A DNA stretch of 36,743 nt. Origin: Verrucomicrobiales bacterium. GTDB lineage: Bacteria; Verrucomicrobiota; Verrucomicrobiia; Limisphaerales; UBA1096. The notes below the pieces were generated by a model that was not told where the DNA came from, did no database searches, and was given only the letters and a program-made list of their open reading frames with translations. The position numbers and the translations under genes are program-made. The DNA lies in assembly GCA_002686755.1 (NCBI GenBank), contig NYYJ01000070.1:1-36743 (forward strand), in the 5' to 3' direction. Shown piece after piece: positions 91-36,743 of this stretch (position 1 is its first letter; every line of letters starts with the position of its first letter).

Positions 91-1354
91 CATGGTGCAC
101 CTCCAGTTCGGCGCTTTCCATTTGGGACACTACCCAGATGTCGGTCAGTTCCGTGCCAACCGGGGACGAGCTTAATGATTTGTCGAGTGGCGCGAAGTCA
201 CTGATCGAAATATTAATTTTCCGTGTCTCGCCTGCTTGGCCAAGCAGGTCGCCTTCCAGTTTTTCAGTGTACTTGCCAAAGAACCCGCCTCTCCGCTTCT
301 TGGTAGTGATTCCGATATAGAGAGGATCCGTGGTTTTTGAGGTCAGGCGGATACTAAATCGAGAGCCTTTCTCGATCATGACTGGGGGTGAACCGCTGCT
401 GCGTACGGAGAAATTAGTGGCATGTATGGTTTTATTTTCGCCAATTAGTAAAGGCATGGCACGAAGGCGAACATCATTCTCCTCGTTTGATTTAAGCCAA
501 CGACCATGCACTGCCTCGGGGCAGGAGAGCATACCGCAGTTCCAATAGTTGACCGGCTCTGGCTGACGTAACGCAGTGAGCGCTTTCCGCTGGCTCATGG
601 TGATTATGGTTTGTTGATCTGCCCCCACATCGACCTGACTGGCGTCCGAAAGTCTTTCCGTGCTCACCGAGCCTTTGTTCACGTTGATGACTGAAATTTC
701 CTCGAACTTGGTCTCAACATCGAATTGTGCATTGGTGGTTTTGAGCCGTGCTGTTTCTGTAAGGATGGAAACAGGCCGGACGCCTTCTGGAGTGTTGATC
801 GTGGCCCAAAGGTTGCCGTATCGCAGCAGGAATGCCCGGTGGTTTTCGTCATGAATGAGCCGCATGCTCGAGCGACCCGAGAGTATCACGTGAGAGCCGT
901 CGTTGAGTTTCAAATTGACCCATGAACGGCTGGAGAGTGTCCGCAACTTATCACCGATCTTCAGCATTACGCCGGGCATCAACGCCGGTAGAGTGACACC
1001 GTCCGAAGCAAGGTGCTGATTTGGTCCGTGGGTGGCGACCACTTCAGCCCTGAGACCGCGGTCAGCAGATTGGAATGAGAACAAGAAGGAACCGGCCAAA
1101 ATCAGAATAATAGTGGCGGCGACGGCCCATTTGACCGGATTAAAAACGGGGCGGACAACCTTGGCAGGTTCACGCTGTTGTGCCAGGCGTTCGACGTCCG
1201 CAACGACCACCGCCTGCTCGGCGACTCCTCGTAGGAAAGATCGCGCCTCAGCGTTCTCCTTTAAAAGTTGGTTCAGGTCCGTCGTCTCACCCGAGGAAAG
1301 TTCCCCGTTCAAATGCCGCAGCAAACGTCCTTGTTGTTCTTGGTTCAATGCCAT
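62..1354 (-). CDS. FecR-like membrane protein, probable partner of the ECF sigma factor
   Basis: A 430-residue protein. The ATG at 1354 is preferred because it lies just after the sigma factor stop (1371); a longer frame would need a TTG inside the sigma gene. Residues 1-80 are a charged, probably cytoplasmic N-terminus that fits an anti-sigma-like segment. One membrane segment follows at about 92-112 (W-A-V-A-A-T-I-I-L-I-L-A-G). A FecR-like periplasmic region comes next, with the family feel of 'LKLNDGSHVILSGRSSMRLI'. The C-terminal third is not recognised. Family knowledge: FecR proteins transmit a periplasmic signal to a cytoplasmic ECF factor. The adjacent sigma gene supports that role, but the ligand is unknown. 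A palindrome core at 236-243 encodes L-G-Q-A near the C-terminus. The 3' end lies in a 25-bp tandem duplication that seems to have created the present stop codon. Confidence 0.8.
   Translation of the reverse strand: MALNQEQQGRLLRHLNGELSSGETTDLNQLLKENAEARSFLRGVAEQAVVVADVERLAQQREPAKVVRPVFNPVKWAVAATIILILAGSFLFSFQSADRGLRAEVVATHGPNQHLASDGVTLPALMPGVMLKIGDKLRTLSSRSWVNLKLNDGSHVILSGRSSMRLIHDENHRAFLLRYGNLWATINTPEGVRPVSILTETARLKTTNAQFDVETKFEEISVINVNKGSVSTERLSDASQVDVGADQQTIITMSQRKALTALRQPEPVNYWNCGMLSCPEAVHGRWLKSNEENDVRLRAMPLLIGENKTIHATNFSVRSSGSPPVMIEKGSRFSIRLTSKTTDPLYIGITTKKRRGGFFGKYTEKLEGDLLGQAGETRKINISISDFAPLDKSLSSSPVGTELTDIWVVSQMESAELEVHHVEFLPREAH
234..245. repeat. Palindrome copy with extended symmetry in the FecR-like gene
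   Basis: GCTTGGCCAAGC here sits in an 18-bp perfect palindrome (231-248), with CCT and AGG flanks instead of the usual outer CGC/GCG. Read L-G-Q-A on the minus strand. Confidence 0.9.
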
Positions 1355-1370
1355 TTGGTTAAGAGATGAT

Positions 1371-1892
1371 TTAACTAACCGCTTGATTGAGCTTTGTCTC
1401 AATGCAGTCTTTCAATGAGTTGTGCAGTCGGGAGAGTCGCTTGTAGATCGCGTCCAGCTTGGCCCCGAGTAGAGAGGCCACTTCTTCACAGCGTTGCCCG
1501 TCAAAGTAACGCAGCTTAAGCAATTCGCGCGATTTTTCAGGCAGTTCGTTGAGACAGTCGCGCAGCGCCTGGCTGCGGCCGCCCGCTTGGCCAAGCGCCT
1601 CGTCGGCCCACTCCGCCTCAAGCACATCGAGGATGGTTTCATCCAGCCTGACAGGCGCATTTTTTTGGCGCCGCAACCAGTCGATCCCCTCGCGCCGGGC
1701 CGTGATGAAGGCCCACGACATCAGCGCTCCGTCCGAGTCGAACGTCACCTCCTTGGCCAAGGCCTTGAGGGCGACATTCTGAAAAATATCCTCGGCCGCG
1801 TGGGCATCCCGGACTACCAGCCAGGCCGCCGCCGATACGCGATCGCGCTGGCCCATCAGCCGCTTCAAAATGTCCTGTTCAGAAAGCACCAC
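1371..1892 (-). CDS. ECF-type RNA polymerase sigma-70 factor
   Basis: A 173-residue two-domain sigma factor. Region 2 spans about residues 15-78, with the core-binding pattern A-A-E-D-I-F-Q-N-V and W-A-F-I-T-A-R-R-E. Region 4 spans about 108-165, with L-P-E-K-S-R-E-L-L-K-L-R-Y and a C-terminal helix-turn-helix ending in Y-K-R-L-S-R-L. Only GTG starts are available (1892 or 1889); no upstream ATG exists before an in-frame stop. The FecR-like gene follows 16 bp downstream, so the two form a sigma/FecR signalling unit. The linker between regions 2 and 4 carries a perfect 14-bp palindrome (1584-1597), translated A-L-G-Q-A. A second core copy at 1753-1760 encodes L-A-K in region 2. The sequence resembles the ECF groups common in Planctomycetota and Verrucomicrobiota; its regulon cannot be read from this window. 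Confidence 0.88.
   Translation of the reverse strand: MVLSEQDILKRLMGQRDRVSAAAWLVVRDAHAAEDIFQNVALKALAKEVTFDSDGALMSWAFITARREGIDWLRRQKNAPVRLDETILDVLEAEWADEALGQAGGRSQALRDCLNELPEKSRELLKLRYFDGQRCEEVASLLGAKLDAIYKRLSRLHNSLKDCIETKLNQAVS
1584..1597. repeat. Perfect 14-bp palindrome CGCTTGGCCAAGCG
   Basis: In the sigma factor linker between regions 2 and 4, read A-L-G-Q-A. Confidence 0.97.
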
Positions 1893-1928
1893 CGGTTTTA
1901 ATAACGAATCCCGGACGAAAAACCTGAC

Positions 1929-1958
1929 ATTTTATTTCGAAATTATCCACTTGGCCAA
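1929..1958 (-). promoter_or_regulatory. Possible promoter of the sigma/FecR operon
   Basis: On the minus strand, TTGGCC (1958-1953) and TAAAAT (1934-1929) are separated by 18 bp, 37 bp upstream of the GTG start. The -35-like hexamer is half of a palindrome copy (core 1951-1958). Each hexamer is an imperfect match and nothing else supports the call. Confidence 0.22.
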
Positions 1959-1971
1959 GCGCTTGACCAAT
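1950..1971. repeat. Palindrome copy plus a decayed copy 12 bp on
   Basis: CTTGGCCAAGCG (1950-1961) is followed in phase by CGCTTGACCAA, a one-mismatch second copy sharing the AAGCGCTT junction. It lies in the divergent promoter region between the sigma factor and the sugar dehydrogenase. Confidence 0.85.
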
Positions 1972-3314: not shown

Positions 3315-3358
3315 CGCTTGGCCAAGCGGGCGAAAAAAGGGTTGCCCTTGGCCAAGCG
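3315..3358. repeat. Two intergenic palindrome copies after the sugar dehydrogenase
   Basis: A perfect 14-mer at 3315-3328 begins 11 nt after the stop codon. A 12-bp copy with one outer base lost is at 3347-3358. Confidence 0.95.
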
Positions 3359-5703: not shown

Positions 5704-5724
5704 GGCCAAGCGCTTGGCCAAGCG
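5704..5724. repeat. Perfect palindrome after glgC with a half copy in 12-bp phase
   Basis: The perfect 14-mer is 5711-5724, 10 nt after the glgC stop. The preceding GGCCAAGCG (5704-5712) is the right half of another unit. Confidence 0.9.
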
Positions 5725-5869: not shown

Positions 5870-8176
5870 ATGAAAACGCCAGTTTTTCTCGGTTTGAGCC
5901 TGGCTGCCGCTGCGGCAACGGCGGCCCCTGTCGAGGGTTGGCTCCACATGCGCGGGCCGCTGCAAACCGGCGTTTCGCTGGAGACTCATCTGCCGGACAG
6001 CATCCAGGCGGCGGACGCGCTCTGGACGGTCGATCTGCCGGGTCGATCCACCCCGACGGTGGCAAACGGACGACTCTTCGTTGTCGGTCATCTCGGCGAG
6101 GGAGCCGACCTGCAGGAGGGCGTGTTTTGCTTCGACGCTGAGACCGGCAAGCCTCTTTGGGAGCACAAGTTCAACGACTTCCTGAGCGATATCATCTACA
6201 CGCGCTACGCTTCCTCCAGCCCGACGATCGATCCCGAGACCGGCAACCTGTTCTTCCAGGGCACGCAGGGAATTTTCGCGTCGTTCACACCGGAAGGAAA
6301 AATGCTATGGCAACATTCGTTGATGGAGGCGCTGGGCCGGATGACTTTCCCGAATGGCCGCACTGCCACTCCGGTGGTCGATCGCGACCTGGTGATCACG
6401 CGCGGCATCATGGCCAACTGGGGTGCGCAGGGACCGCCGTGGGATCGCTTTTACGGCTTCGACAAAAAAACCGGCGAACTGGCCTGGGCGGCCAAGCCGG
6501 GCGGGCGGCCGAAGGACAGTTGCTTCTCATCACCGGCGCTTGGTTGGCTCGACGGCAAGCGCGTCTTTTACGCCACCACCGGCGACGGCAGCGTGGTCTG
6601 CGCGAACGCCCGCACCGGCGAGGCGATCTGGCAGGTGCCGTTGTTCAAGGCCGGCATCAACGCCTCGGTTGTCGTTTACAACGATGAGATCGTTGCGGCG
6701 ATCTACGGCACACCGTACGAGCCGGGGCAGATGGTCGGGTTCAAGATTCCGCAAGTGCAGCCGAAGGATGCCAACCCGGTAGTCATCGAGCGCAAACAGG
6801 TTGAGCTTTGGACGCAGAAAATCACCACCTCCACCAGCTCGCCGATCCTTGTCAGGGATACCATTTACGTCGTCGCCGAAAAGGGCGAATTGCACAGCGT
6901 CAACATCACGACCGGCAGGGAAAACTGGAAGATCAAACTTGGCATCGAGCAGCGCAACGCCTCGCCGCTGTTCGCCGATGGGAAAATCTACCTACCAATG
7001 CTCGAGAACCCGGCCGGTGAAGGCGGCGCGGCCAAAGGCGGCACCGGCACGCACGGCGCGTTTTACGTAATAAAACCGGGCAAAAACGAGGCCAAGATTT
7101 TGTCGCATGCGGTGCTCGACGGACGCTGTTTTGCCACGCCGTCCATTTACAACGGCAAGGTCTACGTGCAGACAACGAAGAAGCTTTACTGCTTTGGCCA
7201 AGCTGGACGGAGCCGCGGGCTGGCCAAACCGCCCTTGGCCAAGCGCTGGCCCGACGCTGGTGAAGCGACGCGGTTGCAGATCGTGCCGTCGGAAATCGTG
7301 CTCGCGCCGGGCCAAGCGGTCTCCTTCCGCACGCGCAAGCTCGATGCCAACGGCTTCCTCGTCGAGGAGGTGGACGGCTCGACGCTCAAGTGGGAGTCGT
7401 ACATCCCGCCGACGGCCAAGGTGAAGGCCCGCATGAACGCCTCGTTCAACGACCGCGGCCAGATCGTTGCCGACAAAAAAATGATCAGTTCCGCTGGTGC
7501 ATTCAGGGCGACGCTGGGTGGACTGACGGGCGTGATCCGAGGCCGTGTGCTGCCGGCGCCGCCGCTGAGTGAGGATTTCGAGGGCTTCAAGCTGACGGAG
7601 GACAGTCTTGTGGACGACGGCGTAAAATTCGCCTACCCGCCGCTGCCGTGGATTGGGGCGCGGTTCAAGTTCGAGGTGCGCGAGCGGGACGGCTCCAATG
7701 TGCTGCGCAAGACGATCGACAACAAGCGGCTGCAGCGCGCCACGGTGTTCATCGGAGAACAGGGTATGAGCAACTACACCGTCCAGGCCGATGTGCTGAC
7801 GGATGGCCGACGCAGGAAGATGTCCGACGTTGGTATCATCAACCAGCGCTACTACATCGTGTTAAAGGGTAACGAGCAGAAGCTTGAGATCAACTCCAAC
7901 CTCGACCGCATCCGGGTGCCGGAACGTGGCTCGCCGCCGAACTACCGGTGGAAGGCAAACACATGGCAAACAATCAAGGCGCGCATCGACGTGGCCGCAG
8001 ACGGCTCAGGCGTCGTCCGGGCCAAGGCCTGGCCGAGGGAGGAAGCCGAGCCGGAAGGCTGGACGCTGGAGTACCGACACGCCAAAGCCCACAAGAATGG
8101 CTCGCCGGGTTTATTCGGGTTTTCCCCGCAAATGCCGGTGTACATCGACAACGTCAAGGTGACGCCCAATCGTTAA
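5870..8176 (+). CDS. Secreted PQQ-like beta-propeller protein with C-terminal jelly-roll domain
   Basis: 768 residues with a clear signal peptide (M-K-T-P-V-F-L-G-L-S-L-A-A-A-A-A-T-A-A-P). Residues about 30-440 form an outer membrane assembly/PQQ-like propeller built from repeated D-A-E-T-G-K-P-L-W-type blades, such as 'DKKTGELAWAAKPG' and 'NARTGEAIWQVPLF'. A linker at about 440-480 contains two palindrome cores (7194-7201 and 7235-7242), translated F-G-Q-A and P-L-A-K-R, right at the domain boundary. The C-terminal region (about 560-768) looks like a concanavalin-like jelly roll (D-F-E-G-F ... Y-I-D-N-V-K-V). The substrate or partner is not evident and PQQ binding is not proven. The next gene, another propeller, starts 11 bp later, so the two are likely co-transcribed. 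Confidence 0.75.
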   Translation: MKTPVFLGLSLAAAAATAAPVEGWLHMRGPLQTGVSLETHLPDSIQAADALWTVDLPGRSTPTVANGRLFVVGHLGEGADLQEGVFCFDAETGKPLWEHKFNDFLSDIIYTRYASSSPTIDPETGNLFFQGTQGIFASFTPEGKMLWQHSLMEALGRMTFPNGRTATPVVDRDLVITRGIMANWGAQGPPWDRFYGFDKKTGELAWAAKPGGRPKDSCFSSPALGWLDGKRVFYATTGDGSVVCANARTGEAIWQVPLFKAGINASVVVYNDEIVAAIYGTPYEPGQMVGFKIPQVQPKDANPVVIERKQVELWTQKITTSTSSPILVRDTIYVVAEKGELHSVNITTGRENWKIKLGIEQRNASPLFADGKIYLPMLENPAGEGGAAKGGTGTHGAFYVIKPGKNEAKILSHAVLDGRCFATPSIYNGKVYVQTTKKLYCFGQAGRSRGLAKPPLAKRWPDAGEATRLQIVPSEIVLAPGQAVSFRTRKLDANGFLVEEVDGSTLKWESYIPPTAKVKARMNASFNDRGQIVADKKMISSAGAFRATLGGLTGVIRGRVLPAPPLSEDFEGFKLTEDSLVDDGVKFAYPPLPWIGARFKFEVRERDGSNVLRKTIDNKRLQRATVFIGEQGMSNYTVQADVLTDGRRRKMSDVGIINQRYYIVLKGNEQKLEINSNLDRIRVPERGSPPNYRWKANTWQTIKARIDVAADGSGVVRAKAWPREEAEPEGWTLEYRHAKAHKNGSPGLFGFSPQMPVYIDNVKVTPNR

Positions 8177-8187: not shown

Positions 8188-9795
8188 ATGATGAAAAACT
8201 TGAGAAATGTGATCGCGGCCGGCTTGGCCACCGGTTTATTCGGCGGCTCCGCCATCGAGGCGGCGGATTGGCCGCAGTGGGGCGGCAACACACTGGGCCG
8301 CAATATGTTCGCCGCCGGGGCCACCGGCCTGCCGGACAAGGTTGAGCCGGGCGGGTTCAAGCAGGGAACCGAGGAGGTCGATCTCTCCACCGCCAAGAAC
8401 GTCAAGTGGGTGGCCAAGCTCGGCACGCAAAGCTACGGCAACCCGACCATCTCCAACGGCAAGATTTTCGTCGGCACGAACAACGACTCGATGCGCGACC
8501 CGAAGCACGAGGGCGACCGCAGCATCCTGTTGTGCCTCGACGAAAAGAGCGGCGACTTCCTGTGGCAACTGGTCATCCCCAAACTCAAGTCTGGCAAGGT
8601 CAACGACTGGGAAAGCCTTGGGCTGCTCTCATCACCGACTGTGATCGGCAACCGTGTCTACGTGGTCAGCAGCCGTTGCGAGGTGCTCTGCCTGGACGTC
8701 GACGGCTTGGCCAACGGCAACGACGGCCCGTACAAGGACGAGGCCGTCTATGTGCATCTCGACACCGGCAAGCCGCCGGCCAAGCTGGGGCCGAAGGACG
8801 GCGACATCATTTGGCGTTACGACATGATGGACGAGCTGGGCGTGTTCCCGCACAATGCATCGAACTGCTCGGTCATCGTGGTGGGCGGCATGGTGTATGC
8901 CTGCACCTCCAACGGACAGGATTGGACACACTCCAACGTTCCTTCGCCTCTTTCCCCGAGCTTCATCGCGCTGGATGCCAAGACGGGTGAACTTCTCGGC
9001 GAGGACGACGCCGGCATCGGCCCGAACATTTTCCACGGCCAATGGAGCTCGCCCTCCTACGGCGTGGTCAATGGCAAGGGCCAGTTGTTCTTCGGCGGCG
9101 GCGACGGGATCTGTTACGCCTTCGAGCCGAAGCCGGTTTACGACGAGGATGAAGATCTCGACTTCCTCCGCAAAATCTGGTGGTACGATTCCAACCCACC
9201 CGAGTACAAGAAGGATGAGGACGGCAAGGTGATCAAGTATCCCGCCGCCGAGGGGCCGAACGAGATCAATTCCACGCCGGTGTTTTACAACGGGCGCGTC
9301 TACGTGGCCCACGGGCAGGATCCGGAGCATGGCGAGGGCGTGGGCCACCTCGTCTGCATCGATCCCACAAAGAAGGGGGACATCACCCAAAGCGGCACGG
9401 TCTGGTCGTACAAGGGCATCAAGCGCAGCATCTCCACCGTGTCGATCGATCCGGCCAACGGGCTGCTGTTTGTCGGCGATTTTTCCGGCTTCGTGCACTG
9501 TCTCGACGCCGACACCGGCAAGCTGCACTGGGTGTACGACATGAAGGCGCACATGTGGGGCTCGACGCTGGTGGCCGACGGCAAGGTTTATGTCGGTGAC
9601 GAGGACGGCGACTTCGTCGTGCTGGCTTCCGACAAAAAAATGAAGTTGCTCAGCGAGACCTATTTCCCGGCGCCGATTTACTCCACGCCGGTCGTGGCCA
9701 ACGGCATTTTATACGTGGCGACCCAGTCGCATCTGTACGCCGTGTACGACGAGGCCCGCGCCAAGGCCTCCACTGATCAACCGAAAACCAAATGA
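8188..9795 (+). CDS. Secreted PQQ-like beta-propeller protein
   Basis: 535 residues. ATG-ATG at 8188/8191 starts a signal peptide (N-L-R-N-V-I-A-A-G-L-A-T-G-L-F-G-G-S) ending near I-E-A-A-D-W-P-Q-W-G-G-N. The frame is open further upstream only because it overlaps the previous gene. W-P-Q-W-G-G-N is the common opening of PQQ-like dehydrogenase-type propellers. Blades repeat patterns such as C-L-D-E-K-S-G-D-F-L-W, A-L-D-A-K-T-G-E-L-L and C-L-D-A-D-T-G-K-L-H-W. It lacks the C-terminal domain of its neighbour. The function is probably periplasmic, either redox or scaffold. One palindrome core at 8707-8714 encodes L-A-N; an imperfect copy (9801-9814) starts 6 nt after the stop. Confidence 0.8.
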   Translation: MMKNLRNVIAAGLATGLFGGSAIEAADWPQWGGNTLGRNMFAAGATGLPDKVEPGGFKQGTEEVDLSTAKNVKWVAKLGTQSYGNPTISNGKIFVGTNNDSMRDPKHEGDRSILLCLDEKSGDFLWQLVIPKLKSGKVNDWESLGLLSSPTVIGNRVYVVSSRCEVLCLDVDGLANGNDGPYKDEAVYVHLDTGKPPAKLGPKDGDIIWRYDMMDELGVFPHNASNCSVIVVGGMVYACTSNGQDWTHSNVPSPLSPSFIALDAKTGELLGEDDAGIGPNIFHGQWSSPSYGVVNGKGQLFFGGGDGICYAFEPKPVYDEDEDLDFLRKIWWYDSNPPEYKKDEDGKVIKYPAAEGPNEINSTPVFYNGRVYVAHGQDPEHGEGVGHLVCIDPTKKGDITQSGTVWSYKGIKRSISTVSIDPANGLLFVGDFSGFVHCLDADTGKLHWVYDMKAHMWGSTLVADGKVYVGDEDGDFVVLASDKKMKLLSETYFPAPIYSTPVVANGILYVATQSHLYAVYDEARAKASTDQPKTK

Positions 9796-9800: not shown

Positions 9801-9814
9801 CGCTTGGCCAACCG
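9801..9814. repeat. Near-perfect palindrome after the second propeller gene
   Basis: CGCTTGGCCAACCG has one mismatch, 6 nt after the stop at 9795 and just before the DUF3311 start. Confidence 0.9.
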
Positions 9815-9820: not shown

Positions 9821-10051
9821 ATGAAAAAAGTTGTATACGGCTTGATCTTCCTGCTGGCCGTCATCCATCAGGATGTCTGGTGGTGGGACGACAACTCGTT
9901 GGTGTTCGGCTTCATGCCGCTTGGCCTGTTTTACCATGCGCTGTTTTCCTGCATGGCGGCCGGCGTCTGGGCGATGGCCGTCAAGTGGGCTTGGCCAAGC
10001 GACATCGAGCGGTGGGCCGAGTCGACTGACGAACAGGGGGGCGACCAATGA
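9821..10051 (+). CDS. Small DUF3311-type membrane protein
   Basis: A 76-residue protein with two membrane segments (about 5-20 and 28-52), with W-W-W-D-D between them and F-G-F-M-P-L-G-L-F-Y-H. This is the typical make-up of the DUF3311 family, which is found next to sodium:solute symporters and is thought to assist them. Its stop codon overlaps the symporter start by 4 bp (ATGA at 10048-10051), so translation is coupled. A palindrome core at 9991-9998 encodes A-W-P-S just after the second helix. It is the only copy in the window read in the Trp-Pro frame. Confidence 0.8.
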   Translation: MKKVVYGLIFLLAVIHQDVWWWDDNSLVFGFMPLGLFYHALFSCMAAGVWAMAVKWAWPSDIERWAESTDEQGGDQ

Positions 10052-11655: not shown

Positions 11656-11669
11656 CGCTTGGCCAAGCG
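11656..11669. repeat. Perfect 14-bp palindrome CGCTTGGCCAAGCG
   Basis: Intergenic, 4 nt after the symporter stop (11652). Confidence 0.97.
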
Positions 11670-14261: not shown

Positions 14262-14275
14262 CGCTTGGCCAAGCG
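14262..14275. repeat. Perfect 14-bp palindrome CGCTTGGCCAAGCG
   Basis: Intergenic, 6 nt after the stop of the aldehyde-dehydrogenase-fold gene. Confidence 0.97.
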
Positions 14276-26434: not shown

Positions 26435-27027
26435 CAGCGTTCCATTCTCCACTCGTTCATTAGCTCCTTCCCGGTGCGGCTTTCGTAGGAGCGGGGTGTC
26501 CAGCGGCGGAGCAACTCGAACGACCCGCCGAATCGCTCGTCCAGCTCGGCGGCCGTACTGCTGAACGGCGGCTCGCCGTTGTCTTCGGTGATCATGTAGT
26601 TGACCGCGAGGTAAAGCCCACCCGGCTTGAGCCAGCCACGGAGGGCCTTCGCGTAATCGCCGCGCCGCCCCGGCGGGATGGCGCAAAAGAGCGTGTGCTC
26701 AAACACAAGGTCATACTGCTGGTGTGGCGTGTCGCCCAAAAAGTCACCGATGCGGTGGTCGATCTCGAGGGCTTCCGCCTTGGCCAAGCGCTTGGCCAAA
26801 GGCACGGAACTGGGGGCGATGTCGAGCCCGGTCACTATCCAGCCAGCCCGGGCCAGGGCGCGGGCATCGTGGCCGTGGCCGCAGCCGGGCACGAGCGCCT
26901 GGCCAAGCGGGGCTTCAGGGCATTCCGCGAGATAATCGACCAAGCCGGGCGACGCCTCGCCGTGATCCCAGAAGGTGTCGTTGGCCCGGTAAAGCGCTTC
27001 CCAATCCCTGTCGTCGTTGATTTGCAT
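26434..27027 (-). CDS. SAM-dependent methyltransferase, TPMT-like
   Basis: 197 residues from the ATG at 27027. The opening W-E-A-L-Y-R-A-N-D-T-F-W-D-H-G-E-A-S-P-G-L is characteristic of the thiopurine methyltransferase branch. The SAM motif is A-L-V-P-G-C-G-H-G-H-D (45-55) and the second acidic motif is V-T-G-L-D-I-A. These small enzymes methylate thiols, selenium or tellurium oxyanions, or halides. Its stop overlaps the start of the FG-GAP gene by one base. Two palindrome cores 12 bp apart (26780, 26792) give V-P-L-A-K-R-L-A-K-A-E-A, and a one-mismatch copy near 26898 gives P-L-G-Q-A just before the SAM motif. The long upstream extension of the frame, antisense to the next gene, is rejected. 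Confidence 0.82.
   Translation of the reverse strand: MQINDDRDWEALYRANDTFWDHGEASPGLVDYLAECPEAPLGQALVPGCGHGHDARALARAGWIVTGLDIAPSSVPLAKRLAKAEALEIDHRIGDFLGDTPHQQYDLVFEHTLFCAIPPGRRGDYAKALRGWLKPGGLYLAVNYMITEDNGEPPFSSTAAELDERFGGSFELLRRWTPRSYESRTGKELMNEWRMER
26779..26799. repeat. Two palindrome cores in 12-bp tandem inside the methyltransferase
   Basis: Cores at 26780-26787 and 26792-26799 share the AAGCGCTT junction. The 12-bp period keeps the frame and gives L-A-K-R-L-A-K. Confidence 0.95.
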
Positions 27028-28049: not shown

Positions 28050-28050
28050 T

Positions 28051-29022: not shown

Positions 29023-31053
29023 TCAGACGCCGAGGGCGTTGAGCAGGTAAAAGAAAACCCCGGCGGCGCTGGCGACGATCACGAGTCCTTCCACGACCAG
29101 CAGCGCGACGGGCGGCAGGCCAAGCGCGCCGCCTTGGCCGGTCGGTTTGCCAGCTTGGCCAAGCGTACCGAGCATCAGGCTGCCGGTCATCACGACCAAC
29201 TGCGCGCAGACGAACACCATCAGCCAGGCGAACGCCTTGTCCATGAAGCCGTACGAGTGCAGGCCGATGCCTAGCATGTTTGTCCCGAAGAAAGACCAGG
29301 CGGTGACAGCGTTGCCGAAGATCGCCATGGCGACGAGGCCGCGCTCGCGGATCAGCCCGCCCCATCGCGCGTGCAGGATGGCGGCGTTCCAAATGACGAC
29401 CATCAGAGCGCCGTTCTCTTTCGGGTCCCAGCCCCAGAACCGGCCCCACGACTGGTCTGCCCAGATGCCGCCCAGCACCGTGCCGACAAAGCTGAACAGC
29501 GTCGCAAAACAGACGATACCGTAGATCATCTTGGTGAGCGCTGTGCGGTTGGCCTTGTTGAACGGCACTTTGTTGGACACGAAGTCGCGCACCACAAAGA
29601 CAATCGCGAGGAAGCCGGCGACGAACGTGGCCGAGTAGCCGATGGTGATGATCACCACGTGAGTCGCGAGCCAGAAGTTGGTGTCGAGCACGGCCTGCAG
29701 CATCTCCATCGTGTCGCCGCTAAGCGAAAGCCCTCCGGCGACGAGCAGCGTGACAAAGCCGACCGCGCTGGCGACGACGTTCCCGATGCCGTCCCGGTAA
29801 ATGCGCTCGAGAATCAGCCCGAGAATCACCGCACCCCAGCCGACGAACACTGCGGCGGAGTACAGATTGGTCACCGGCGGACGGCCCTCGAGCCACATGC
29901 GGAAGATCAGCCCGGAGGTGTGGATGACGGCGGCCAGTGCGATCAGATTGTAGGCGGTGCGGTTGGGCCACTTGGCCAAGGTCAGCCAGCCACCGCAAGC
30001 CAGCAGGAAGGCCAGCACATAGAGGATTTCGCACTTGTAAAACGGGTCGAAGTTATTGAATGCAAACTCTTTGCCCGTTTTGCCAAGCGCGGTGCTGTGT
30101 CCGTTTTTTCCGAGATAATCGCGGTAACCGGCAAGGGCATTGTTGAATTCCTCGGGCTTGTCGTTTTTGTAGGCGGTGAGCATCCCGGCGTACGCCTTGG
30201 CGGCGGGATCGATTTCAATTTTCCAGTCGTTGTCCGCTGCCGCAGCGTTGGTGATGCTGTGAAACAGGCTCGAGTTGAGCGAGCGCCAACTGGCATTGCT
30301 GTCGTTCCCCGGCGGGATGACCCGGGGCCAAAACATCACGCCGCCCCGGTCCCCTTCATGTGCCCCGGGTTCGAGCAGCTTGTCGATCAATCCGGTGAAC
30401 TGGTGGTGATCTTCCTCGTCATGCTCGGCGCCGGTTTCGTGTGCCCGGGCGGCAGCCATTCCGATCGGGAAAATCTCCTCGAACTGTTTCAACTCGCCGG
30501 CAAAATCGACCGAGCGCTGCGGCCGGAAGCTCTTGGCCAAGCGTTGGTAAATCAGCAGTGAGTCGGCGACCGCCTTCAGCGATTTTTCGTACGGCGTGCG
30601 CAGCGAGACCTCCTTGGAGTGGATGCGCCCGCTCTCCCGGGCCAGGCGCTCGAAGTTGTTGCCGGCAGTGATGTCGTTCACCGAGAAATGTTTCTCCTCC
30701 TTGGCCAAGCGGAGGTGATCCTTGATTTCCTCGTTATCGATGCGGAACACCGGCCGGGTGCGGGCCACGTCCGGCTTGGCCGCCAGTTCCAGCAGCCATT
30801 CGATCGCCGGGATGGTTTCCACCTCGCCGCCGTCCCGGGCGTAGCGGCCGGTGGACTTGTGGCGGATGACCTGCATGGCGTTCCGGGCGGTCGCATCGAT
30901 CGGCTGGATGCGCCCGTCGAGCAGCACCGGCAGGCGTCCGAAGCCGTACAGATCCGGCTGACCGTCGGCGACGCTGGGCATGCGCACCAGCCCCATCAAG
31001 GCCCACAAGGCCATGACCGTGACTGCAACGACCGGGACGGACAGCTTTTTCAT
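29023..31053 (-). CDS. ccsA: Cytochrome c maturation protein CcsA/ResC (System II)
   Basis: 676 residues. One N-terminal helix is followed by a long periplasmic region (about 30-340) and then eight or so membrane helices. The heme-handling WWD signature reads W-G-R-F-W-G-W-D-P-K-E-N-G-A, with histidines in A-V-I-H-T-S-G and G-I-G-L-H-S-Y-G. With ResB it forms the System II heme exporter and cytochrome c synthase, which attaches heme to CxxCH proteins outside the membrane. Its start overlaps the resB stop by 4 bp. Palindrome cores at 29155, 29972, 30533 and 30701 encode T-L-G-Q-A-G-K, T-L-A-K-W, R-L-A-K-S and R-L-A-K-E; two of them are in the periplasmic region. Confidence 0.9.
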   Translation of the reverse strand: MKKLSVPVVAVTVMALWALMGLVRMPSVADGQPDLYGFGRLPVLLDGRIQPIDATARNAMQVIRHKSTGRYARDGGEVETIPAIEWLLELAAKPDVARTRPVFRIDNEEIKDHLRLAKEEKHFSVNDITAGNNFERLARESGRIHSKEVSLRTPYEKSLKAVADSLLIYQRLAKSFRPQRSVDFAGELKQFEEIFPIGMAAARAHETGAEHDEEDHHQFTGLIDKLLEPGAHEGDRGGVMFWPRVIPPGNDSNASWRSLNSSLFHSITNAAAADNDWKIEIDPAAKAYAGMLTAYKNDKPEEFNNALAGYRDYLGKNGHSTALGKTGKEFAFNNFDPFYKCEILYVLAFLLACGGWLTLAKWPNRTAYNLIALAAVIHTSGLIFRMWLEGRPPVTNLYSAAVFVGWGAVILGLILERIYRDGIGNVVASAVGFVTLLVAGGLSLSGDTMEMLQAVLDTNFWLATHVVIITIGYSATFVAGFLAIVFVVRDFVSNKVPFNKANRTALTKMIYGIVCFATLFSFVGTVLGGIWADQSWGRFWGWDPKENGALMVVIWNAAILHARWGGLIRERGLVAMAIFGNAVTAWSFFGTNMLGIGLHSYGFMDKAFAWLMVFVCAQLVVMTGSLMLGTLGQAGKPTGQGGALGLPPVALLVVEGLVIVASAAGVFFYLLNALGV

Positions 31054-32669
31054 GCGGCGGCCTTTCGTCTTTTGTTGAACGTGAACAGGTGGGTCAGGAA
31101 CTGGATCAGCATGCCCAGCCCCACCATCGCACAGGAGATGTACGGTGTCATCCAGCCGGGATTACGCACGACCTGCAGGACGGTGGCCTTGGGGTTCTTG
31201 GGATCGAAGCTGGCCTGAAAATAGGTTTTGCCGTGGGTGCGCAGCGGGTGGTTCATCCAGATGTTCACCTCGCGTTCGGCCCCGGTGGCGCGTTCGCGCA
31301 CAATGACAAGGCTGGAGAAGTTCCGTGCCTTTTCGGTGCCCTGAAACTTGTCGTGTTTGAAGTCGACCAACTCGATGTCGTACGGCGTGTAATGGCGCGT
31401 GAAGCGCAGCGCCAACTCATACTCCTTACCGTCGTGCTCGAATGTCTGCTCCGGGATCGGTGTCGTCAGCGCGCCGAACATCGCGGCGACCATCCACGTG
31501 CCGAGGTCGGCGCCGTCGGTCGATTTCAGCCGCAGGTAGGCGGCGGGGAAGTTGACTTCCTCGAGCGACGTGACTGAGTCCTTCGGGGTGGAGGCGAGCT
31601 CGCGGCCCTTGCCTTCCGTGGCCCGGCTTTTCTCCGCTTGGCCAAGCGAGACGAGGTCGGAGTTGGTGTAAAAGTCGAGCACGGTCACCTCGAACGGCAG
31701 GGTGCCCATCCGGTGGGTGGTGCCTTTGCCAAGCGCCCCGGCCGGGATGGCGGCGACGGTGTCGGTGTCCGACCGGCTTTTGTCGATGATCACCAGTTCG
31801 CAGTCGCTGCTGCTGATGGAGTAGCCTTTGGCCTGCCCCTCCACGAGCCGGAGGTTGCTTTCGACCTGGTACTTGTCGGTGACCAATTGGCCCAGCAGCA
31901 TGAGGATCAGCCCGGCGTGAGTCAGGAAGATGCCGATTTTTTTCCGCGAAAAGGTGAACCGCTGGAAGTGGGCGGCGAGCAGATTGACCAGCAGCACGAT
32001 GCCGACGAGGTAGCCGCCGACGAATGGAAACTGGAACATCACCGGATAACGGGCCGAGCGGACGTACTCCCGGAAGGCTTCCTTTTCCCGCATCACCGCT
32101 TCGGTGTCGCCGGTGATCTTGTAAAACCACATCTCCGGCAGCGAGCGGTAGGAGAGGGAATGGATGACACCCAGCGTCGTCGTCGGCCGGCCGTCGCGCG
32201 TACCGCTCAACTCGACGTAGGTTCCGCGGTTGCCGTCCACCTCGAACGGCTGCGTTGCCTCCGCGAGTTGGTCTTGGCCAATCCCCCCCAGGCCAAGCTG
32301 GCCGCGCCACCGGTTGACGTTGTCCAGCAGCCCGGTGCCCTTGGCCAGCTTGGTGACCGAGATGACCGCCTTGTCGTCGCCGTGTTGTGCCTCGAAATTG
32401 ATGAGGCTGAACTGCGCCGGCTCCGTCTCGTTCCAGTGCGCTGGCGGTTGCCACTCGGAGCCGCCGAGCCGAATCTGCGCCCAGCCCGCGCCGCCGATGC
32501 TTTCCGGCACGAGGAAGTAGCTGCGGAAATATTTTTTCTGTGCGTCGTACAGTCCCTGATCGACCTGCGCCAGCGTGCCGACAAACACCAGCACCATCGC
32601 CGCAATCAGGCAGACCACAGTCAGGCGCAGCGAGCACCAAAACTGAACGAATAGCTTGAGGAACGGCAT
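31050..32669 (-). CDS. resB: Cytochrome c maturation protein ResB with an inserted domain
   Basis: 539 residues from the ATG at 32669, which overlaps the upstream stop by one base. The ResB plan is present. TM1 (about 8-34) ends in G-T-L-A-Q-V-D-Q-G-L-Y. TM2 (about 215-235) is G-G-Y-L-V-G-I-V-L-L-V-N-L-L-A-A-H, and TM3 is about 245-263. A large periplasmic domain follows, then TM4 and a basic tail. Between TM1 and TM2 lies an extra domain of about 140 residues (about 67-205), with N-V-N-R-W-R-G-Q-L-G-L and W-F-Y-K-I-T-G. It is homologous to the two domains of the preceding gene and is not usual in ResB. A perfect palindrome (31635-31648) encodes S-L-G-Q-A-E-K. Works with CcsA. Confidence 0.87.
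   Translation of the reverse strand: MPFLKLFVQFWCSLRLTVVCLIAAMVLVFVGTLAQVDQGLYDAQKKYFRSYFLVPESIGGAGWAQIRLGGSEWQPPAHWNETEPAQFSLINFEAQHGDDKAVISVTKLAKGTGLLDNVNRWRGQLGLGGIGQDQLAEATQPFEVDGNRGTYVELSGTRDGRPTTTLGVIHSLSYRSLPEMWFYKITGDTEAVMREKEAFREYVRSARYPVMFQFPFVGGYLVGIVLLVNLLAAHFQRFTFSRKKIGIFLTHAGLILMLLGQLVTDKYQVESNLRLVEGQAKGYSISSSDCELVIIDKSRSDTDTVAAIPAGALGKGTTHRMGTLPFEVTVLDFYTNSDLVSLGQAEKSRATEGKGRELASTPKDSVTSLEEVNFPAAYLRLKSTDGADLGTWMVAAMFGALTTPIPEQTFEHDGKEYELALRFTRHYTPYDIELVDFKHDKFQGTEKARNFSSLVIVRERATGAEREVNIWMNHPLRTHGKTYFQASFDPKNPKATVLQVVRNPGWMTPYISCAMVGLGMLIQFLTHLFTFNKRRKAAA
31635..31648. repeat. Perfect 14-bp palindrome CGCTTGGCCAAGCG
   Basis: In the periplasmic domain of ResB, read L-G-Q-A. Confidence 0.97.
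32298..32334. repeat. 37-nt direct repeat, copy in resB
   Basis: Matches 32909-32945 in the upstream gene at 36 of 37 positions (mismatch at 32322 versus 32933). It encodes the N-V-N-R-W-R-G-Q core of the shared domain. Confidence 0.93.
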
Positions 32670-33808
32670 CACGGCTTGGGAAGCTGGATGGTTTGAATGA
32701 ACTCCATGAATGCGCCTTTCTCGGCGGTGACCACCGCGCTTGGCCCGCTCATTTTGTAAAACCAGGTCTGGCCGTCCGCCGGGTGGAATACGCTCAACGA
32801 GGCGCTGGTCTCGCCGATGGCCTCGACGAGCGTGGCCGGCGTCCCGCTGATGGTCACCGTCGTGGTCGCCTTGGCCAGGCCGGCGGCATCGACCGGCGGA
32901 AGGCCGGACTGGCCGCGCCACCGGTTGACGTTGGCCAGCAGCCCGCCGACATCGCCGGGGAAGGTCATCACCGTGATCTCCGCCTTGCCGTTCCCGGCGG
33001 TGAAGTTGCCCAAGCGCATCGAGGTCGGCGGCTTGGCGGCCCAGCCGTCCGGCTTGGCCCACGTCGGCGCGGCCGCCGCCGGAGGGGGTGCGGGGGGACG
33101 CGCTGCATCGGCCTCGGCCATCAGCCGGTCAAAGTTCACCTCGCTGGCCCCGGGTTGAAACTGCAGCGTGGCGAGAAAATTAGTGAAGGCGCCGTAATGC
33201 GGCTCGATCGCCCCGGCCGGGCCGGACAGCTTGAAGAACCAACCCACTTGGCCAAGCACCAGCGACGCGGTGACGATGCGCGGCGGGGTCTCCTGTCCCG
33301 CGAGCGGTTCGGTGCCGGCGATGTCGTACAACCGCCCGTCGTGTCCGCCGATCTCGATCGGCTTGGCCAAGGTTTGCAGCGTGGCGTCGTCCGCCGGGCC
33401 AAGGCCGACCTGCTTGCGCCACATGTTGACGATCATCGGGTTCTCCGCCAGCCGCGCCGGCAGCGGGATGGCGCTGACCCCGGCGTTGCCCGGCAGCACG
33501 AAGGAGAAAGTCGTAAGGCTTGTTGCGTCCGTGGTGTCGGTCCAGCCGTCCGGCTTGGTGAACCGGATCAGCGAGTCCGGGGCTGGCTTGGCCGGGGAGG
33601 GTGGAAGTGCGGCGGCCGTGGGCGGCGGGACCGGGTTTTCCCTTGGGACATTGTAGGTGCGCACCTCGCCGCTGTTGCCGGAAAAAATCTCGAACAGCAA
33701 CACGGCCAGCAGCATGACGACGATGAATGCGCCGTCCCGTAAATAGTTGGGCTGTGGTTTCTCCACGCGGACAGGCAGAGGGACGCGCCGGGCGGACGAC
33801 TCATTCAC
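32669..33808 (-). CDS. Membrane-anchored protein with two copies of an uncharacterised domain
   Basis: 379 residues from a GTG start (ACGGG just upstream). There is a single N-terminal membrane anchor (about 27-42) and a Pro/Ala-rich stretch. Two related domains follow (about 85-216 and 252-377). Each opens with K-P-D-G-W, has a central W-R-x-Q-x-G-L, then W-F-[FY]-K-[LM]-S-G-P, and closes with G-A-F-x-[EN]-F. The same domain is inserted in ResB, the next gene, whose start overlaps this stop by one base. I do not recognise the family. Position as first gene of the System II operon and the shared domain suggest a periplasmic partner of ResB/CcsA; this is inference. Palindrome cores at 33248 and 33363 are read V-L-G-Q-V and T-L-A-K-P. 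Confidence 0.75.
   Translation of the reverse strand: MNESSARRVPLPVRVEKPQPNYLRDGAFIVVMLLAVLLFEIFSGNSGEVRTYNVPRENPVPPPTAAALPPSPAKPAPDSLIRFTKPDGWTDTTDATSLTTFSFVLPGNAGVSAIPLPARLAENPMIVNMWRKQVGLGPADDATLQTLAKPIEIGGHDGRLYDIAGTEPLAGQETPPRIVTASLVLGQVGWFFKLSGPAGAIEPHYGAFTNFLATLQFQPGASEVNFDRLMAEADAARPPAPPPAAAAPTWAKPDGWAAKPPTSMRLGNFTAGNGKAEITVMTFPGDVGGLLANVNRWRGQSGLPPVDAAGLAKATTTVTISGTPATLVEAIGETSASLSVFHPADGQTWFYKMSGPSAVVTAEKGAFMEFIQTIQLPKP
32909..32945. repeat. 37-nt direct repeat, copy in the gene upstream of resB
   Basis: Partner of 32298-32334. Such identity over codons that could vary silently suggests a recent duplication or gene conversion between the neighbouring genes. Confidence 0.93.
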
Positions 33809-33924: not shown

Positions 33925-34695
33925 ATGGACGATCTGTTTTATCCGGGGCCGTTCGAGTTTCGCATGGGGCTGGAGCGAGGCGAGCCGGGGGCGTTTTTCT
34001 GCGCCTGGCCCGGCGACGAGGCGCTCCTGGCCAAGCGCGGGCAATGCCTCGCCGGGCACCCCAAGCGCCACGACGTCCTGCTTCCGGAGGGCGAGCCGTT
34101 GCGGGCGGAATTCACCCGGATGCTGGCCGAATGGGGCGTGGCGGCCAAGCCGGCAGCGCTTGGCCAAGCGATCGCGCCAGACTGGTTGCTGCTCCAGCCC
34201 ACCGCCGCCGGGATGCCGGTGCTGCTCGGCGGCTGCGTCTGTTTTCCGTCGTCGTGGGCGTTCGAGGAGAAAGTCGGCCGGCCGCTCGACTGGATTCACG
34301 CCGTCGTCCCGACGCTCAACGAAAAACTGGGTGAAAAAGCAAGGAGCTTTCTAACAAAGCTGCAGCTTGGCCAAGCGTGGCTACGCGCTAACTGGGGTCT
34401 CACCGCCAGTCCGGAACTCAATCAGCACCCGGCGCTTGGCCTGCCCGGCCTCACGCCGGACGTCGGCTTGGAGGGAGTGTGGTTTCGCGTTGAGCGGCAG
34501 GCATTGGTTGCGCTGCCGGAGACCGGCGGCATTCTGTTCGGCATTCGACTGGAGGTGGTGCCGTTGGCCAGGCTCCGGGAAAACCAACCGGCCCGCGCCG
34601 GCCTGCTCGAGGCCCTCGAGACCATGCCCGACAAGATCGCCGACTACAAAAACCTCACCCCGGCCCGTGGGCAACTGATCCGGCTTTTGCGCTGA
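33925..34695 (+). CDS. DUF3445-type heme-dependent oxidative N-demethylase family protein
   Basis: 256 residues from the ATG at 33925; an upstream extension is antisense to the divergent gene and unlikely. Family blocks are D-W-L-L-L-Q-P, G-G-C-V-C-F-P-S-S-W-A-F-E-E-K-V-G-R-P-L, I-H-A-V-V-P, L-R-A-N-W-G-L and R-V-E-R-Q-A-L-V-A-L-P-E-T-G. The characterised member is a heme-containing demethylase subunit; the substrate here is unknown. The C-terminus meets the convergent small ORF with no intervening base. A perfect palindrome (34157-34170) and a core (34367-34374) are read A-L-G-Q-A and Q-L-G-Q-A; a one-mismatch copy near 34027 gives L-L-A-K-R. Confidence 0.78.
   Translation: MDDLFYPGPFEFRMGLERGEPGAFFCAWPGDEALLAKRGQCLAGHPKRHDVLLPEGEPLRAEFTRMLAEWGVAAKPAALGQAIAPDWLLLQPTAAGMPVLLGGCVCFPSSWAFEEKVGRPLDWIHAVVPTLNEKLGEKARSFLTKLQLGQAWLRANWGLTASPELNQHPALGLPGLTPDVGLEGVWFRVERQALVALPETGGILFGIRLEVVPLARLRENQPARAGLLEALETMPDKIADYKNLTPARGQLIRLLR
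34157..34170. repeat. Perfect 14-bp palindrome CGCTTGGCCAAGCG
   Basis: In the DUF3445 gene, read A-L-G-Q-A. Confidence 0.97.
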
Positions 34696-34914: not shown

Positions 34915-35300
34915 CCGTCGGCCCGTTTTTCGAGGAGGGCCATCGCGGTGGCCTGATGGGCGGTGTGGCTGAGGCTGAGATGGATCACCCCTCCGCCGCG
35001 CGACTCGAGCAGCGCCTGGCCGGTGCCATGGAGGATGACGTACGGCGCGCCGGAGTCGCGCTTGGCCACTTCCATGTCGTGCCAGCCCAACTCGGCGCTG
35101 ATGCCGGTGCCAAACGCCTTCGAGATCGCCTCCTTGGCGGCGAAACGCGCGGCCAGGCTTGGGGCGGGGTCTTTGTGCCGCAGGCAGTATTCGATCTCGG
35201 CGGGGAGCAGGATGCGCTCGATGAATCGGTCGCCGAGTCTCTCGTGTGAGTCGCGGATGCGCCCGATCTCGACGGTGTCGATGCCGATGCCGCCGATCAT
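34911..35300 (-). CDS. acpS: Holo-[acyl-carrier-protein] synthase
   Basis: 129 residues. AcpS transfers 4'-phosphopantetheine from CoA to the acyl carrier protein. Motifs are [12 protein letters not shown] at the N-terminus, [17 protein letters not shown] in the middle (catalytic Glu in K-E-A) and L-S-L-S-H-T late. The start overlaps the pdxJ stop by 4 bp (ATGA), the classic pdxJ-acpS arrangement. The longer open frame reading back through pdxJ is an artefact. Only a decayed palindrome (near 35059) lies inside. Confidence 0.94.
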
Positions 35301-36043
35301 CCCGCCGACGGGTAGCCGTCCATCAGCCGGAGCATTTCGCTCACCGCCGGGGCAAGGCCGACGGTGACGGCGCGACTGACGATGCTGTGGCCGATGTTCA
35401 GCTCGTTGAGGTGCGGCACGGCAAAGATGCCTCGGGTGTTTTCGTAGTTGAGGCCGTGCCCGGCGTTGACGCCGAGGCCAAGCGACTTGGCCAGTTCGCT
35501 CGTCTTGGCCAAGCGCTCCAGCTCGGCGGCACGCTTGGCCCCGTCGCCGTACGCCTCGGCGTAGGCGCCGGTGTGCAGCTCGATGAACGGGCTGCCGGTC
35601 GCTGCGGTGGCCTCGATCTGCGCCGGGTCGGGGTCGATGAACAGGCTGACCTCGATGCCGGCTTGGCCAAGCGCGGCGGCGGCTTCGGTGATGGCGTCGG
35701 CCTGGCTTACGACATTCAGCCCGCCCTCGGTCGTGACCTCGGCGCGGTTCTCCGGCACGAGGCAGACGGCCTCCGGCTTGAGGCGCAGGGCGATGTCGAT
35801 CATCTCCGGCGTGGTGGCCATCTCGAAGTTGAGGCGCGTGGTCACCGCGTTGCGGATGGCCCAGATGTCGCGGTCGAGAATGTGCCGGCGATCCTCGCGC
35901 AGGTGGGCGGTGATGCCGTGCGCGCCGGCGGCCTCGGCCTGCCGGACGGCGTCGACCGGGCACGGCTCGCCGTGGTCGAGGCCGCGATACCGCGCCTGCC
36001 GCAGCGTGGCGACGTGGTCGATGTTGACGCCGAGTCTGAGCAT
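35297..36043 (-). CDS. pdxJ: Pyridoxine 5'-phosphate synthase
   Basis: 248 residues. PdxJ condenses 1-deoxyxylulose-5-phosphate with 3-amino-1-hydroxyacetone phosphate to form vitamin B6 phosphate. Family blocks: [52 protein letters not shown] and V-N-A-G-H-G-L. Two palindrome cores are present, A-L-G-Q-A-G-I (35663-35670) and R-L-A-K-T (35505-35512). Both sit in alpha helices and appear to replace residues without changing length compared with the E. coli enzyme as I recall it. Coupled to acpS. Confidence 0.95.
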
Positions 36044-36056
36044 CGGGTTTGGGGCG

Positions 36057-36743
36057 TTACTTTTTGTTCGCCGGTTTCGCGGGCTTCTTCGGCTTGGGCG
36101 TGCGCTTTTTCTCCGGGGCCGGCGGCCACTCGAGCGTCGGCGTGGGGAAACGGGGGTTGTCGATCCAGCGGGTTAGCAGGGCGAGCTCGAGCGCGGAGAG
36201 GCCAAGGTGCGACTTGCGGGTGATCGTCAGCCGGTTGCCGTCGATGACGGCGTCGGTGATGGTGTTGCCGAGCTTCGGCCCGAGCGCGGTGAGGAACGCG
36301 ATGCCGGGGGTGTCGTTGACGAGTTGCTCGCGCCGGTCGGAGAGGATGGCGGCGAACTGGATCAGCAGGTTCCATTTCTCGAGCCGCTGCCCGGTGATCT
36401 CCCAGTTGTAATAGACGAGGCCGTCCTTGCCGGTGAACTCGTCGAGCATCGCTTTCGGGATCGGCTTCTTGATCGGATCCGGCGGGAAGACGCCGCCGAC
36501 GAGGTAGCCGGCGTCGTCCGAGTTCCCGACGGTGACGTACGGCGCGAACAGCGGCACGTTGCCCCACGTGAGGGCCGGCTTCTCCGTGTCATGCTCGATC
36601 TGGCCGATGAATTTCTCGCCCCGGCCACCCGGTTTGCGGAAGTCATCCACGCGCTTGGCCAAGCTGGCGATCGTCGCCCCGGGGTCGTCCACCTTCACGG
36701 AGAAAAACGACTGGAACTTGGTGCGCGCCTGCGACCAGGCGTA
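36057..36743 (-). CDS. Uncharacterised protein, N-terminus outside the window
   Basis: The frame is open to the window edge ([18 protein letters not shown] at the edge), so the gene continues upstream. At least 228 residues are visible. A GTG at 36698 is an internal codon, not a convincing start. The protein is soluble-looking with [19 protein letters not shown] and ends in a lysine/proline-rich tail ([12 protein letters not shown]). It is not recognised. The gene lies 13 bp before pdxJ on the same strand, so possibly co-transcribed. A palindrome core at 36655-36662 encodes S-L-A-K-R. Confidence 0.7.

What the first reader, a model, noticed from the sequence alone, without database searches (positions are those of the whole stretch)
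236..36662. A 14-bp highly iterated palindrome pervades the window (48 cores, 11 perfect copies)
Seen: TTGGCCAA occurs 48 times in 36.7 kb, about once per 765 bp, where about 0.4 is expected by a rough independent-base estimate. The consensus extends to the perfect palindrome CGCTTGGCCAAGCG. Copies lie in genes of unrelated function on both strands. Established: cyanobacterial HIP1 (GCGATCGC) behaves this way, while DNA uptake sequences, Chi and KOPS are not symmetrical. I know of no family with this sequence. Inference: it may be a HIP1-like element maintained by a modification or repair enzyme acting on TGGCCA/GGCC, a nucleoid or segregation protein site, or a self-spreading sequence. A dedicated recognition protein would make it a system.
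Basis: partly seen in the sequence, partly recalled or inferred. Interest (0 to 1): 0.95.

Follow-up and report, generated by a model that had tools for sequence, protein, structure and literature searches.

The report
Genome-wide palindrome, likely DNA uptake tag
A group of uncultured marine bacteria (Verrucomicrobiota) carries about a thousand copies per genome of one 14-letter palindrome that has even reshaped their proteins, and because it fades in the lineages that lost their DNA-import genes, it is probably a self-recognition tag for taking up DNA from relatives, a kind of tag so far known from only two bacterial families.

Summary
The window has 48 TTGGCCAA and 11 CGCTTGGCCAAGCG; the 3.5-Mb genome has 988 copies of the 14-mer, against 0 for its reversed control. 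The consensus is about 16 bp (SCGCTTGGCCAAGCGS). It is confined to one genus-level group of marine Verrucomicrobiota.

Sites arise by point substitution, turn over quickly, are held synonymously, and change proteins: LAKR and LGQA are enriched 20-30 fold.

Density instead tracks natural-transformation genes. Where the ffh locus can be read, comEC is missing in the four poorest species and intact in nine richer ones (p=0.0014, phylogeny ignored; a further species, G004, has a truncated comEC yet many copies). dprA is found in 0 of 5 poor and 12 of 16 rich species; pilT in all 21. Poor species G009 and G020 keep the motif-derived peptides but have lost much motif DNA.

Best reading: a palindromic DNA-uptake sequence spread by molecular drive. 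Uptake itself is untested.

The parts
1584..1597 (.). perfect 14-mer CGCTTGGCCAAGCG
3315..3328 (.). perfect 14-mer
5711..5724 (.). perfect 14-mer, overlapping a second partial copy upstream (GGCCAAGCGCTTGGCCAAGCG)
10073..10086 (.). perfect 14-mer, within SSF transporter gene
11656..11669 (.). perfect 14-mer, between genes
14262..14275 (.). perfect 14-mer, between genes
18409..18422 (.). perfect 14-mer, at the end of a sulfatase gene
18480..18493 (.). perfect 14-mer
24105..24118 (.). perfect 14-mer, in FG-GAP/ASPIC-type gene (RLAKR); same codons in G015, CTG in most other species
31635..31648 (.). perfect 14-mer, in ResB-like gene
34157..34170 (.). perfect 14-mer, in HODM-like gene (ALGQA)
234..245 (.). 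12-mer copy GCTTGGCCAAGC
9989..10000 (.). 12-mer copy
12488..12499 (.). 12-mer copy
15568..15579 (.). 12-mer copy
29153..29164 (.). 12-mer copy, in ResC-like gene (LGQA); core present in 5 of 15 aligned species
34365..34376 (.). 12-mer copy, in HODM-like gene
35661..35672 (.). 12-mer copy, in pdxJ
36653..36664 (.). 12-mer copy
1752..1761 (.). 10-mer copy CTTGGCCAAG
1950..1959 (.). 10-mer copy
3347..3356 (.). 10-mer copy
7234..7243 (.). 10-mer copy
17376..17385 (.). 10-mer copy, end of purQ
20093..20102 (.). 10-mer copy, sulfatase gene
21382..21391 (.). 10-mer copy, sulfatase gene
23933..23942 (.). 10-mer copy
24679..24688 (.). 10-mer copy
26315..26324 (.). 10-mer copy
26779..26788 (.). 10-mer copy, first of an overlapping tandem pair (CTTGGCCAAGCGCTTGGCCAA)
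26792..26799 (.). 8-mer core, second of the tandem pair
29971..29980 (.). 10-mer copy, ResC-like gene
30532..30541 (.). 10-mer copy, ResC-like gene
30700..30709 (.). 10-mer copy, ResC-like gene; AT-rich synonyms in low-density species
33247..33256 (.). 10-mer copy
33362..33371 (.). 10-mer copy
35504..35513 (.). 10-mer copy, pdxJ
7194..7201 (.). 8-mer core
8707..8714 (.). 8-mer core
9804..9811 (.). 8-mer core
10777..10784 (.). 8-mer core
12133..12140 (.). 8-mer core
14474..14481 (.). 8-mer core
15315..15322 (.). 8-mer core
16750..16757 (.). 8-mer core, purQ
17562..17569 (.). 8-mer core, PAP2 gene
24005..24012 (.). 8-mer core
32274..32281 (.). 8-mer core, ResB-like gene

Best explanation
The palindrome S-CGCTTGGCCAAGCG-S is a DNA uptake sequence. 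A sequence-specific DNA receptor on the type IV pilus uptake machine, inferred and not found, would bind it, probably as a symmetric dimer. DNA carrying it would be imported through ComEC, protected by DprA and recombined into the chromosome. Because fragments with the motif are imported more often, point mutations that create or complete it spread by molecular drive. The motif therefore accumulates to about one core per kb, most densely between genes and wherever proteins tolerate it, and it changes amino acids. When a lineage loses comEC and dprA the drive stops and the copies decay by ordinary mutation. Shown here: genome-wide abundance, lineage restriction, origin by substitution, holding of sites, protein scars, near-absence of the tested methyltransferase classes, and association with comEC and dprA but not pilT. 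Inferred: the uptake bias itself and the receptor.
For: Abundance and graded 16-bp consensus. Restricted to one genus of marine Verrucomicrobiota; close pairs of copies found in 84,980 genomes only in Verrucomicrobiota; no motif-rich virus found. Sites are substitutions, not insertions: 0 of 330 gaps at motif columns in sequences lacking it. Motif codons are conserved synonymously (pooled 0.81 against 0.58 expected), not significantly so in G009, G020, G001 or G019; Leu before GGC-CAA is CTT in 93% against 12%. The 14-mer is 5.8 times denser between genes than in them. Proteins show scars: LAKR 23x, LGQA 32x. Where the ffh locus is assembled, comEC is intact in nine species (148-511 12-mers per Mb) and missing in the four poorest (2, 4, 45, 114 per Mb); in three of these ffh abuts vanZ directly (p=0.0014). 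dprA is in 12 of 16 rich and 0 of 5 poor species (p=0.006); pilT in 21 of 21. The rooted tree implies at least three separate losses and an ancestral motif. Poor species G009 and G020 keep LGQA enriched 18x and 11x, but only 53% and 49% are encoded by the motif, against 84-85% in rich species, with near-identical codon-usage expectation. Terminal gains:losses are 21:3 in comEC+ and 0:2.5 in G009+G020.
Against: No uptake experiment exists and no receptor was identified. Known uptake sequences are not palindromes and are not reported from this phylum. G+C content also falls in three of the four comEC-lacking species; G009 (57% G+C) and the codon-usage-matched comparison reduce but do not remove this confounder. 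Only about three independent losses, and the p-values ignore phylogeny. G004 has a truncated comEC but a high density (348 per Mb), though its assembly is error-prone. Seven species could not be scored at the comEC locus. dprA absence in G009 and G020 was not confirmed by gene order, and dprA is also unseen in four rich but incomplete genomes. G011 (comEC+) shows no excess of codon conservation.
Confidence: 0.66

Rival explanations
1. HIP1-type element created and maintained by an orphan DNA methyltransferase together with methylation-directed mismatch repair (Elhai's model).
For: Palindrome with a short core (GGCC) typical of methyltransferases; density close to one per kb; Elhai 2015 (PMC4390886) found a putative cognate methyltransferase for the over-represented sequences of cyanobacteria.
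Against: PF00145 in 1 of 21 species, on a motif-free stretch; PF01555 in none; PF02384 only three marginal hits near 20 bits; the same searches rang in 10-13 of 14 control genomes; no deamination signature; a 14-16 bp consensus is longer than such sites.
Confidence: 0.1
2. Binding site of an abundant nucleoid, segregation or recombination protein (Noc/ParB-like or Chi-like in role), held by selection on binding.
For: 16-bp contiguous palindrome with information falling off from the centre, like a homodimer site; genome-wide; a recombination role would also fit coupling to competence and G+C.
Against: Copies are clustered and not evenly spaced (82 of 323 gaps under 200 bp against about 57 expected; 73 against 117 at 200-800 bp); selection on each of thousands of sites strong enough to change amino acids is hard to justify; does not by itself predict loss together with comEC and dprA.
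Confidence: 0.17
3. A by-product of G+C content: the motif rises and falls with G+C (mutation bias or biased gene conversion), and the competence genes were lost independently.
For: Density rises with G+C across the genus; AT-rich species (40-42%) have almost none.
Against: Other palindromes of the same composition are not enriched; other genomes of the class lack it; G010 and G003 exceed species of equal G+C; motif use for LGQA/LAKR falls in G009 and G020 although codon-usage expectation is unchanged. G+C may modulate, but cannot create, the motif.
Confidence: 0.05
4. Mobile or copied repeat, inserted as a unit.
For: Tandem overlapping copies exist (26779-26799, and near 5711).
Against: No indels at 330 aligned cells; ordinary codons aligned across species; no flanking conservation beyond 16 bp.
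Confidence: 0.01

Closest known systems
DNA uptake sequences (DUS of Neisseriaceae, USS of Pasteurellaceae)
   Same: About one copy per kb; arise by point mutation, not insertion (PMC1626085); commoner in permissive positions (PMC7811141, PMC2397512); held while flanks change; coding copies alter proteins; decay fits loss of competence genes.
   Different: Perfect 14-16 bp palindrome instead of a non-palindromic 9-12 bp core; phylum Verrucomicrobiota; no receptor or uptake assay.
HIP1 (GCGATCGC) and alternate HIPs of cyanobacteria
   Same: Highly iterated perfect palindrome in coding and non-coding DNA at about one per kb; lineage-specific; falls in some lineages (PMC4390886).
   Different: Different sequence and longer consensus; cognate methyltransferase classes essentially absent from the genus; density tracks comEC and dprA.
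Noc-, ParB- or MatP-type chromosome sites (from general knowledge)
   Same: Contiguous palindromic sites spread on the chromosome for a homodimer.
   Different: Those number tens, with regional bias; here there are thousands, in every ordinary contig examined.

Membership tests
DNA uptake sequence (DUS/USS) | Strongly over-represented genome-wide, about one per kb | tested here: met
   1.1 cores per kb, 988 perfect 14-mers per genome
DNA uptake sequence (DUS/USS) | Copies arise by mutation in place, not by insertion | tested here: met
   0 gaps in 330 cells
DNA uptake sequence (DUS/USS) | Under-represented in coding and in newly acquired DNA | tested here: met
   14-mer 5.8x denser between genes. 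For new DNA the evidence is thin: absent from the G008 methyltransferase stretch and from compositionally odd contigs, which may be misbinned
DNA uptake sequence (DUS/USS) | Species carries natural-transformation genes (ComEC, DprA, type IV pilus) | tested here: met
   Own genome: comEC at C13, dprA at C66, pilT at C75 and C49
DNA uptake sequence (DUS/USS) | Motif declines when competence is lost | tested here: met
   exception to be checked: G004
DNA uptake sequence (DUS/USS) | DNA with the motif is preferentially taken up | not testable with these tools
   Needs a transformable culture or purified receptor
DNA uptake sequence (DUS/USS) | Cognate receptor (ComP-like minor pilin in Neisseria) | not tested
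   No pilin survey was made
HIP1-type element with methyltransferase | Highly iterated perfect palindrome | tested here: met
HIP1-type element with methyltransferase | Genome encodes a methyltransferase able to modify the site | tested here: not met
   PF00145, PF01555, PF02384 essentially absent from 21 species; D12 class not searched
Chromosome segregation or nucleoid site | Regional bias (origin or terminus) or even spacing | tested here: inconclusive
   Spacing is clustered, not even; contigs too short for origin-terminus mapping

The most novel reading that the evidence does not exclude
A third, independently evolved DNA uptake-sequence system, the first in Verrucomicrobiota and the first built on a perfect palindrome, so that the uptake receptor reads DNA as a symmetric dimer without regard to strand; and, by extension, that methyltransferase-independent HIPs elsewhere may also be uptake sequences.
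Probability: 0.6. Interest if true: 0.92.

Novelty: new variant of a known kind. Interest (0 to 1): 0.86.

Why it matters
Uptake sequences are described from two families of Proteobacteria (PMC7811141), and highly iterated palindromes from cyanobacteria, where their function is unsolved. Here a HIP-like palindrome without the usual methyltransferases decays where comEC and dprA are gone, which joins the two problems and makes the HIP question testable. It would mean that a marine lineage practises self-selective transformation, show how molecular drive rewrites proteins (tens-fold excess of LGQA and LAKR), and give a DNA barcode for assigning contigs in metagenomes.

Tried and rejected
Methyltransferase or mismatch-repair origin: three methyltransferase classes searched over the genus. 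Insertion or mobile repeat: no indels. Codon or amino-acid usage artefact: synonymous shuffle. Phage carriage: the 11 viral contigs with a close pair of motifs are at background density. Wide spread in the order: two other families (G297, G055) have the motif only on a few contigs, probably misbinned. Even spacing as for a repair-range requirement: spacing is clustered. Literature: no paper in the library reports this motif or an uptake sequence in Verrucomicrobiota (one search listed only 30 of 690 papers that contain the letters). An alignment of one sulfatase was out of frame and was dropped from all later counts.
Full report
OBSERVATION. The counts are exact: 48 TTGGCCAA, 36 CTTGGCCAAG, 19 GCTTGGCCAAGC, 11 CGCTTGGCCAAGCG in 36.7 kb. 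The same holds over the whole 3.50-Mb, 197-contig genome: 988 exact 14-mers and none of the reversed control, 1539 of the 12-mer against 3 for its control. On 429 kb of the genome TTGGCCAA is 52 times and CTTGGCCAAG about 600 times above a dinucleotide model. Information extends 8 bp on each side and falls steadily outwards (consensus SCGCTTGGCCAAGCGS).

WHO HAS IT. All but three of the genus's 21 species carry it, from 144 to 1837 copies of the 12-mer; three have 6-13; 37 genomes from other families of the order have 0-10. In 286 genomes of the class only this one has more than 8 of the 14-mer. A scan of 84,980 species genomes for two nearby copies hit 35 stretches, all in Verrucomicrobiota MAGs, many with marine-looking isolate names (MED711, ALOHA, Arabian, FRAM, NIOZ; one submitted as Pedosphaera sp.). 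Viral contigs with a close motif pair are at background density.

HOW SITES COME AND GO. In codon alignments of window genes from 16 congeners, motif sites are ordinary homologous codons, mostly in LAK(R) and LGQ(A) peptides. They arise by point substitutions, often in parallel, and never with a gap (0 of 330). Codons inside a motif are synonymously conserved more than the same codons elsewhere (0.81 against 0.58 pooled over motif-rich species; CTT 0.82 against 0.28), whereas towards G020, G001, G019 and G009 the excess is not significant (G011, which has comEC, also shows none). Codon choice depends on context: Leu before GGC-CAA is CTT in 93% against 12% elsewhere. Synonymous shuffling removes 90% of sites (377 to 35), and the peptides themselves are in excess: LAKR 23x, LGQA 32x, RLAKR 102x, ALGQA 122x. 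The motif is denser between genes than inside them (2.6x for the core, 5.8x for the 14-mer), and the frame that would encode Trp-Pro is avoided. A strong force therefore creates and holds the motif, and pays for it in amino acids.

NOT METHYLATION, AS FAR AS TESTED. Elhai (PMC4390886) found a putative cognate methyltransferase in all cyanobacterial genomes with highly over-represented sequences. Here PF00145 is found only in G008, on a 3-kb stretch without a motif; PF01555 nowhere; PF02384 only as three marginal hits. The same searches rang in 10, 11 and 13 of 14 control genomes. One-off sites show no C-to-T excess. The D12 class and phosphorothioation were not searched.

THE COMPETENCE LINK. 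ComEC (PF03772, full length with DUF4131) was found in nine species, all motif-rich. Because these genomes are 61-93% complete, absence was checked by gene order: comEC lies between ffh and a vanZ-like gene. Among species where this locus is assembled, comEC is intact in G000, G003 (split over contigs), G007, G008, G011, G013, G015, G016 and G018 (148-511 12-mers per Mb). It is missing in G001, G019 and G009, where ffh abuts vanZ directly, and in G020, where an endonuclease-I/trypsin-like gene follows ffh (2, 4, 114 and 45 per Mb). The separation is complete (p=0.0014, phylogeny ignored; p=0.009 counting G004 as comEC-minus). G004 keeps only 143 N-terminal residues of comEC and a dprA in two frames, but its ffh is also broken, so this is either recent loss or assembly error; its density is high (348 per Mb). 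DprA is found in 12 of 16 motif-rich and 0 of 5 motif-poor species (G001, G005, G009, G019, G020; p=0.006). PilT is found in all 21, so incompleteness or loss of the whole pilus is an unlikely reason.

DIRECTION. A tree rooted with Ffh of nine outgroup genomes puts the AT-rich, motif-poor clade beside the motif-rich G003-G015-G010 group, G009 near G007, and G020 elsewhere. The motif is thus most simply ancestral to the genus, with at least three declines. Fossils agree: in G009 and G020 the peptide LGQA is still 18x and 11x in excess, but only 53% and 49% of copies are still encoded by the motif, against 84-85% in motif-rich species, although codon usage predicts about 3% in all (p from 0.003 to 1.6e-5). 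On terminal branches parsimony gives 21 gains and 3 losses in comEC-plus species but 0 gains and 2.5 losses in G009 plus G020. The gene set is anchored on this genome, which may inflate its own gains.

MECHANISM. These are features recorded for uptake sequences: origin by mutation (PMC1626085), excess in permissive places and rarity in constrained or new DNA (PMC7811141, PMC2397512), and accumulation by molecular drive without any benefit (Maughan et al. 2010, as cited in PMC7811141). I infer that a receptor on the pilus binds the palindrome, ComEC imports the DNA and DprA loads it for recombination. Neither uptake bias nor receptor has been shown. The main confounder is G+C content, which also falls in three of the four comEC-less species; the codon-usage-matched result for G009 and G020 argues that it is not sufficient. 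A cytoplasmic protein whose role is tied to recombination remains the strongest rival.

NOVELTY. No paper found in the library reports this motif or an uptake sequence in this phylum. PMC7811141 names only Pasteurellaceae and Neisseriaceae as having strong preferences. If right, this is a new variant of a known kind (a palindromic uptake sequence in a third lineage), and it bears on the unsolved role of HIPs.

Noticed in passing
L037 (G000:C21), L041 (G000:C25), L042 (G000:C26): Three contigs of the window's genome have 0, 0 and 1 TTGGCCAA in 29 kb and a deviant tetranucleotide profile; probably misbinned. The motif works as a barcode for membership.
   Followed up: partly
L162-L166 (G297, G055, other families): A few contigs in genomes of other families carry the motif with the same flanks (0.4-0.65 cores per kb) while the rest of those genomes has almost none; likely misbinned contigs from the genus.
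   Followed up: partly
L171:2987-4366: In G020 the place of comEC beside ffh is taken by a gene with trypsin and endonuclease I domains.
   Followed up: no
L191 (G004): comEC reduced to its first 143 residues directly against ffh, dprA in two frames, but ffh also frame-broken: recent loss of competence or assembly error.
   Followed up: partly
L197:1231-2418 (dprA of this genome): dprA itself encodes a tandem LGQALGQA, peptides typical of the motif, inside a competence gene.
   Followed up: no
genus-wide (G000-G020): The genus spans about 40-63% G+C in sampled DNA; in the AT-rich clade neither the motif (above about 2x) nor the competence genes were found.
   Followed up: partly
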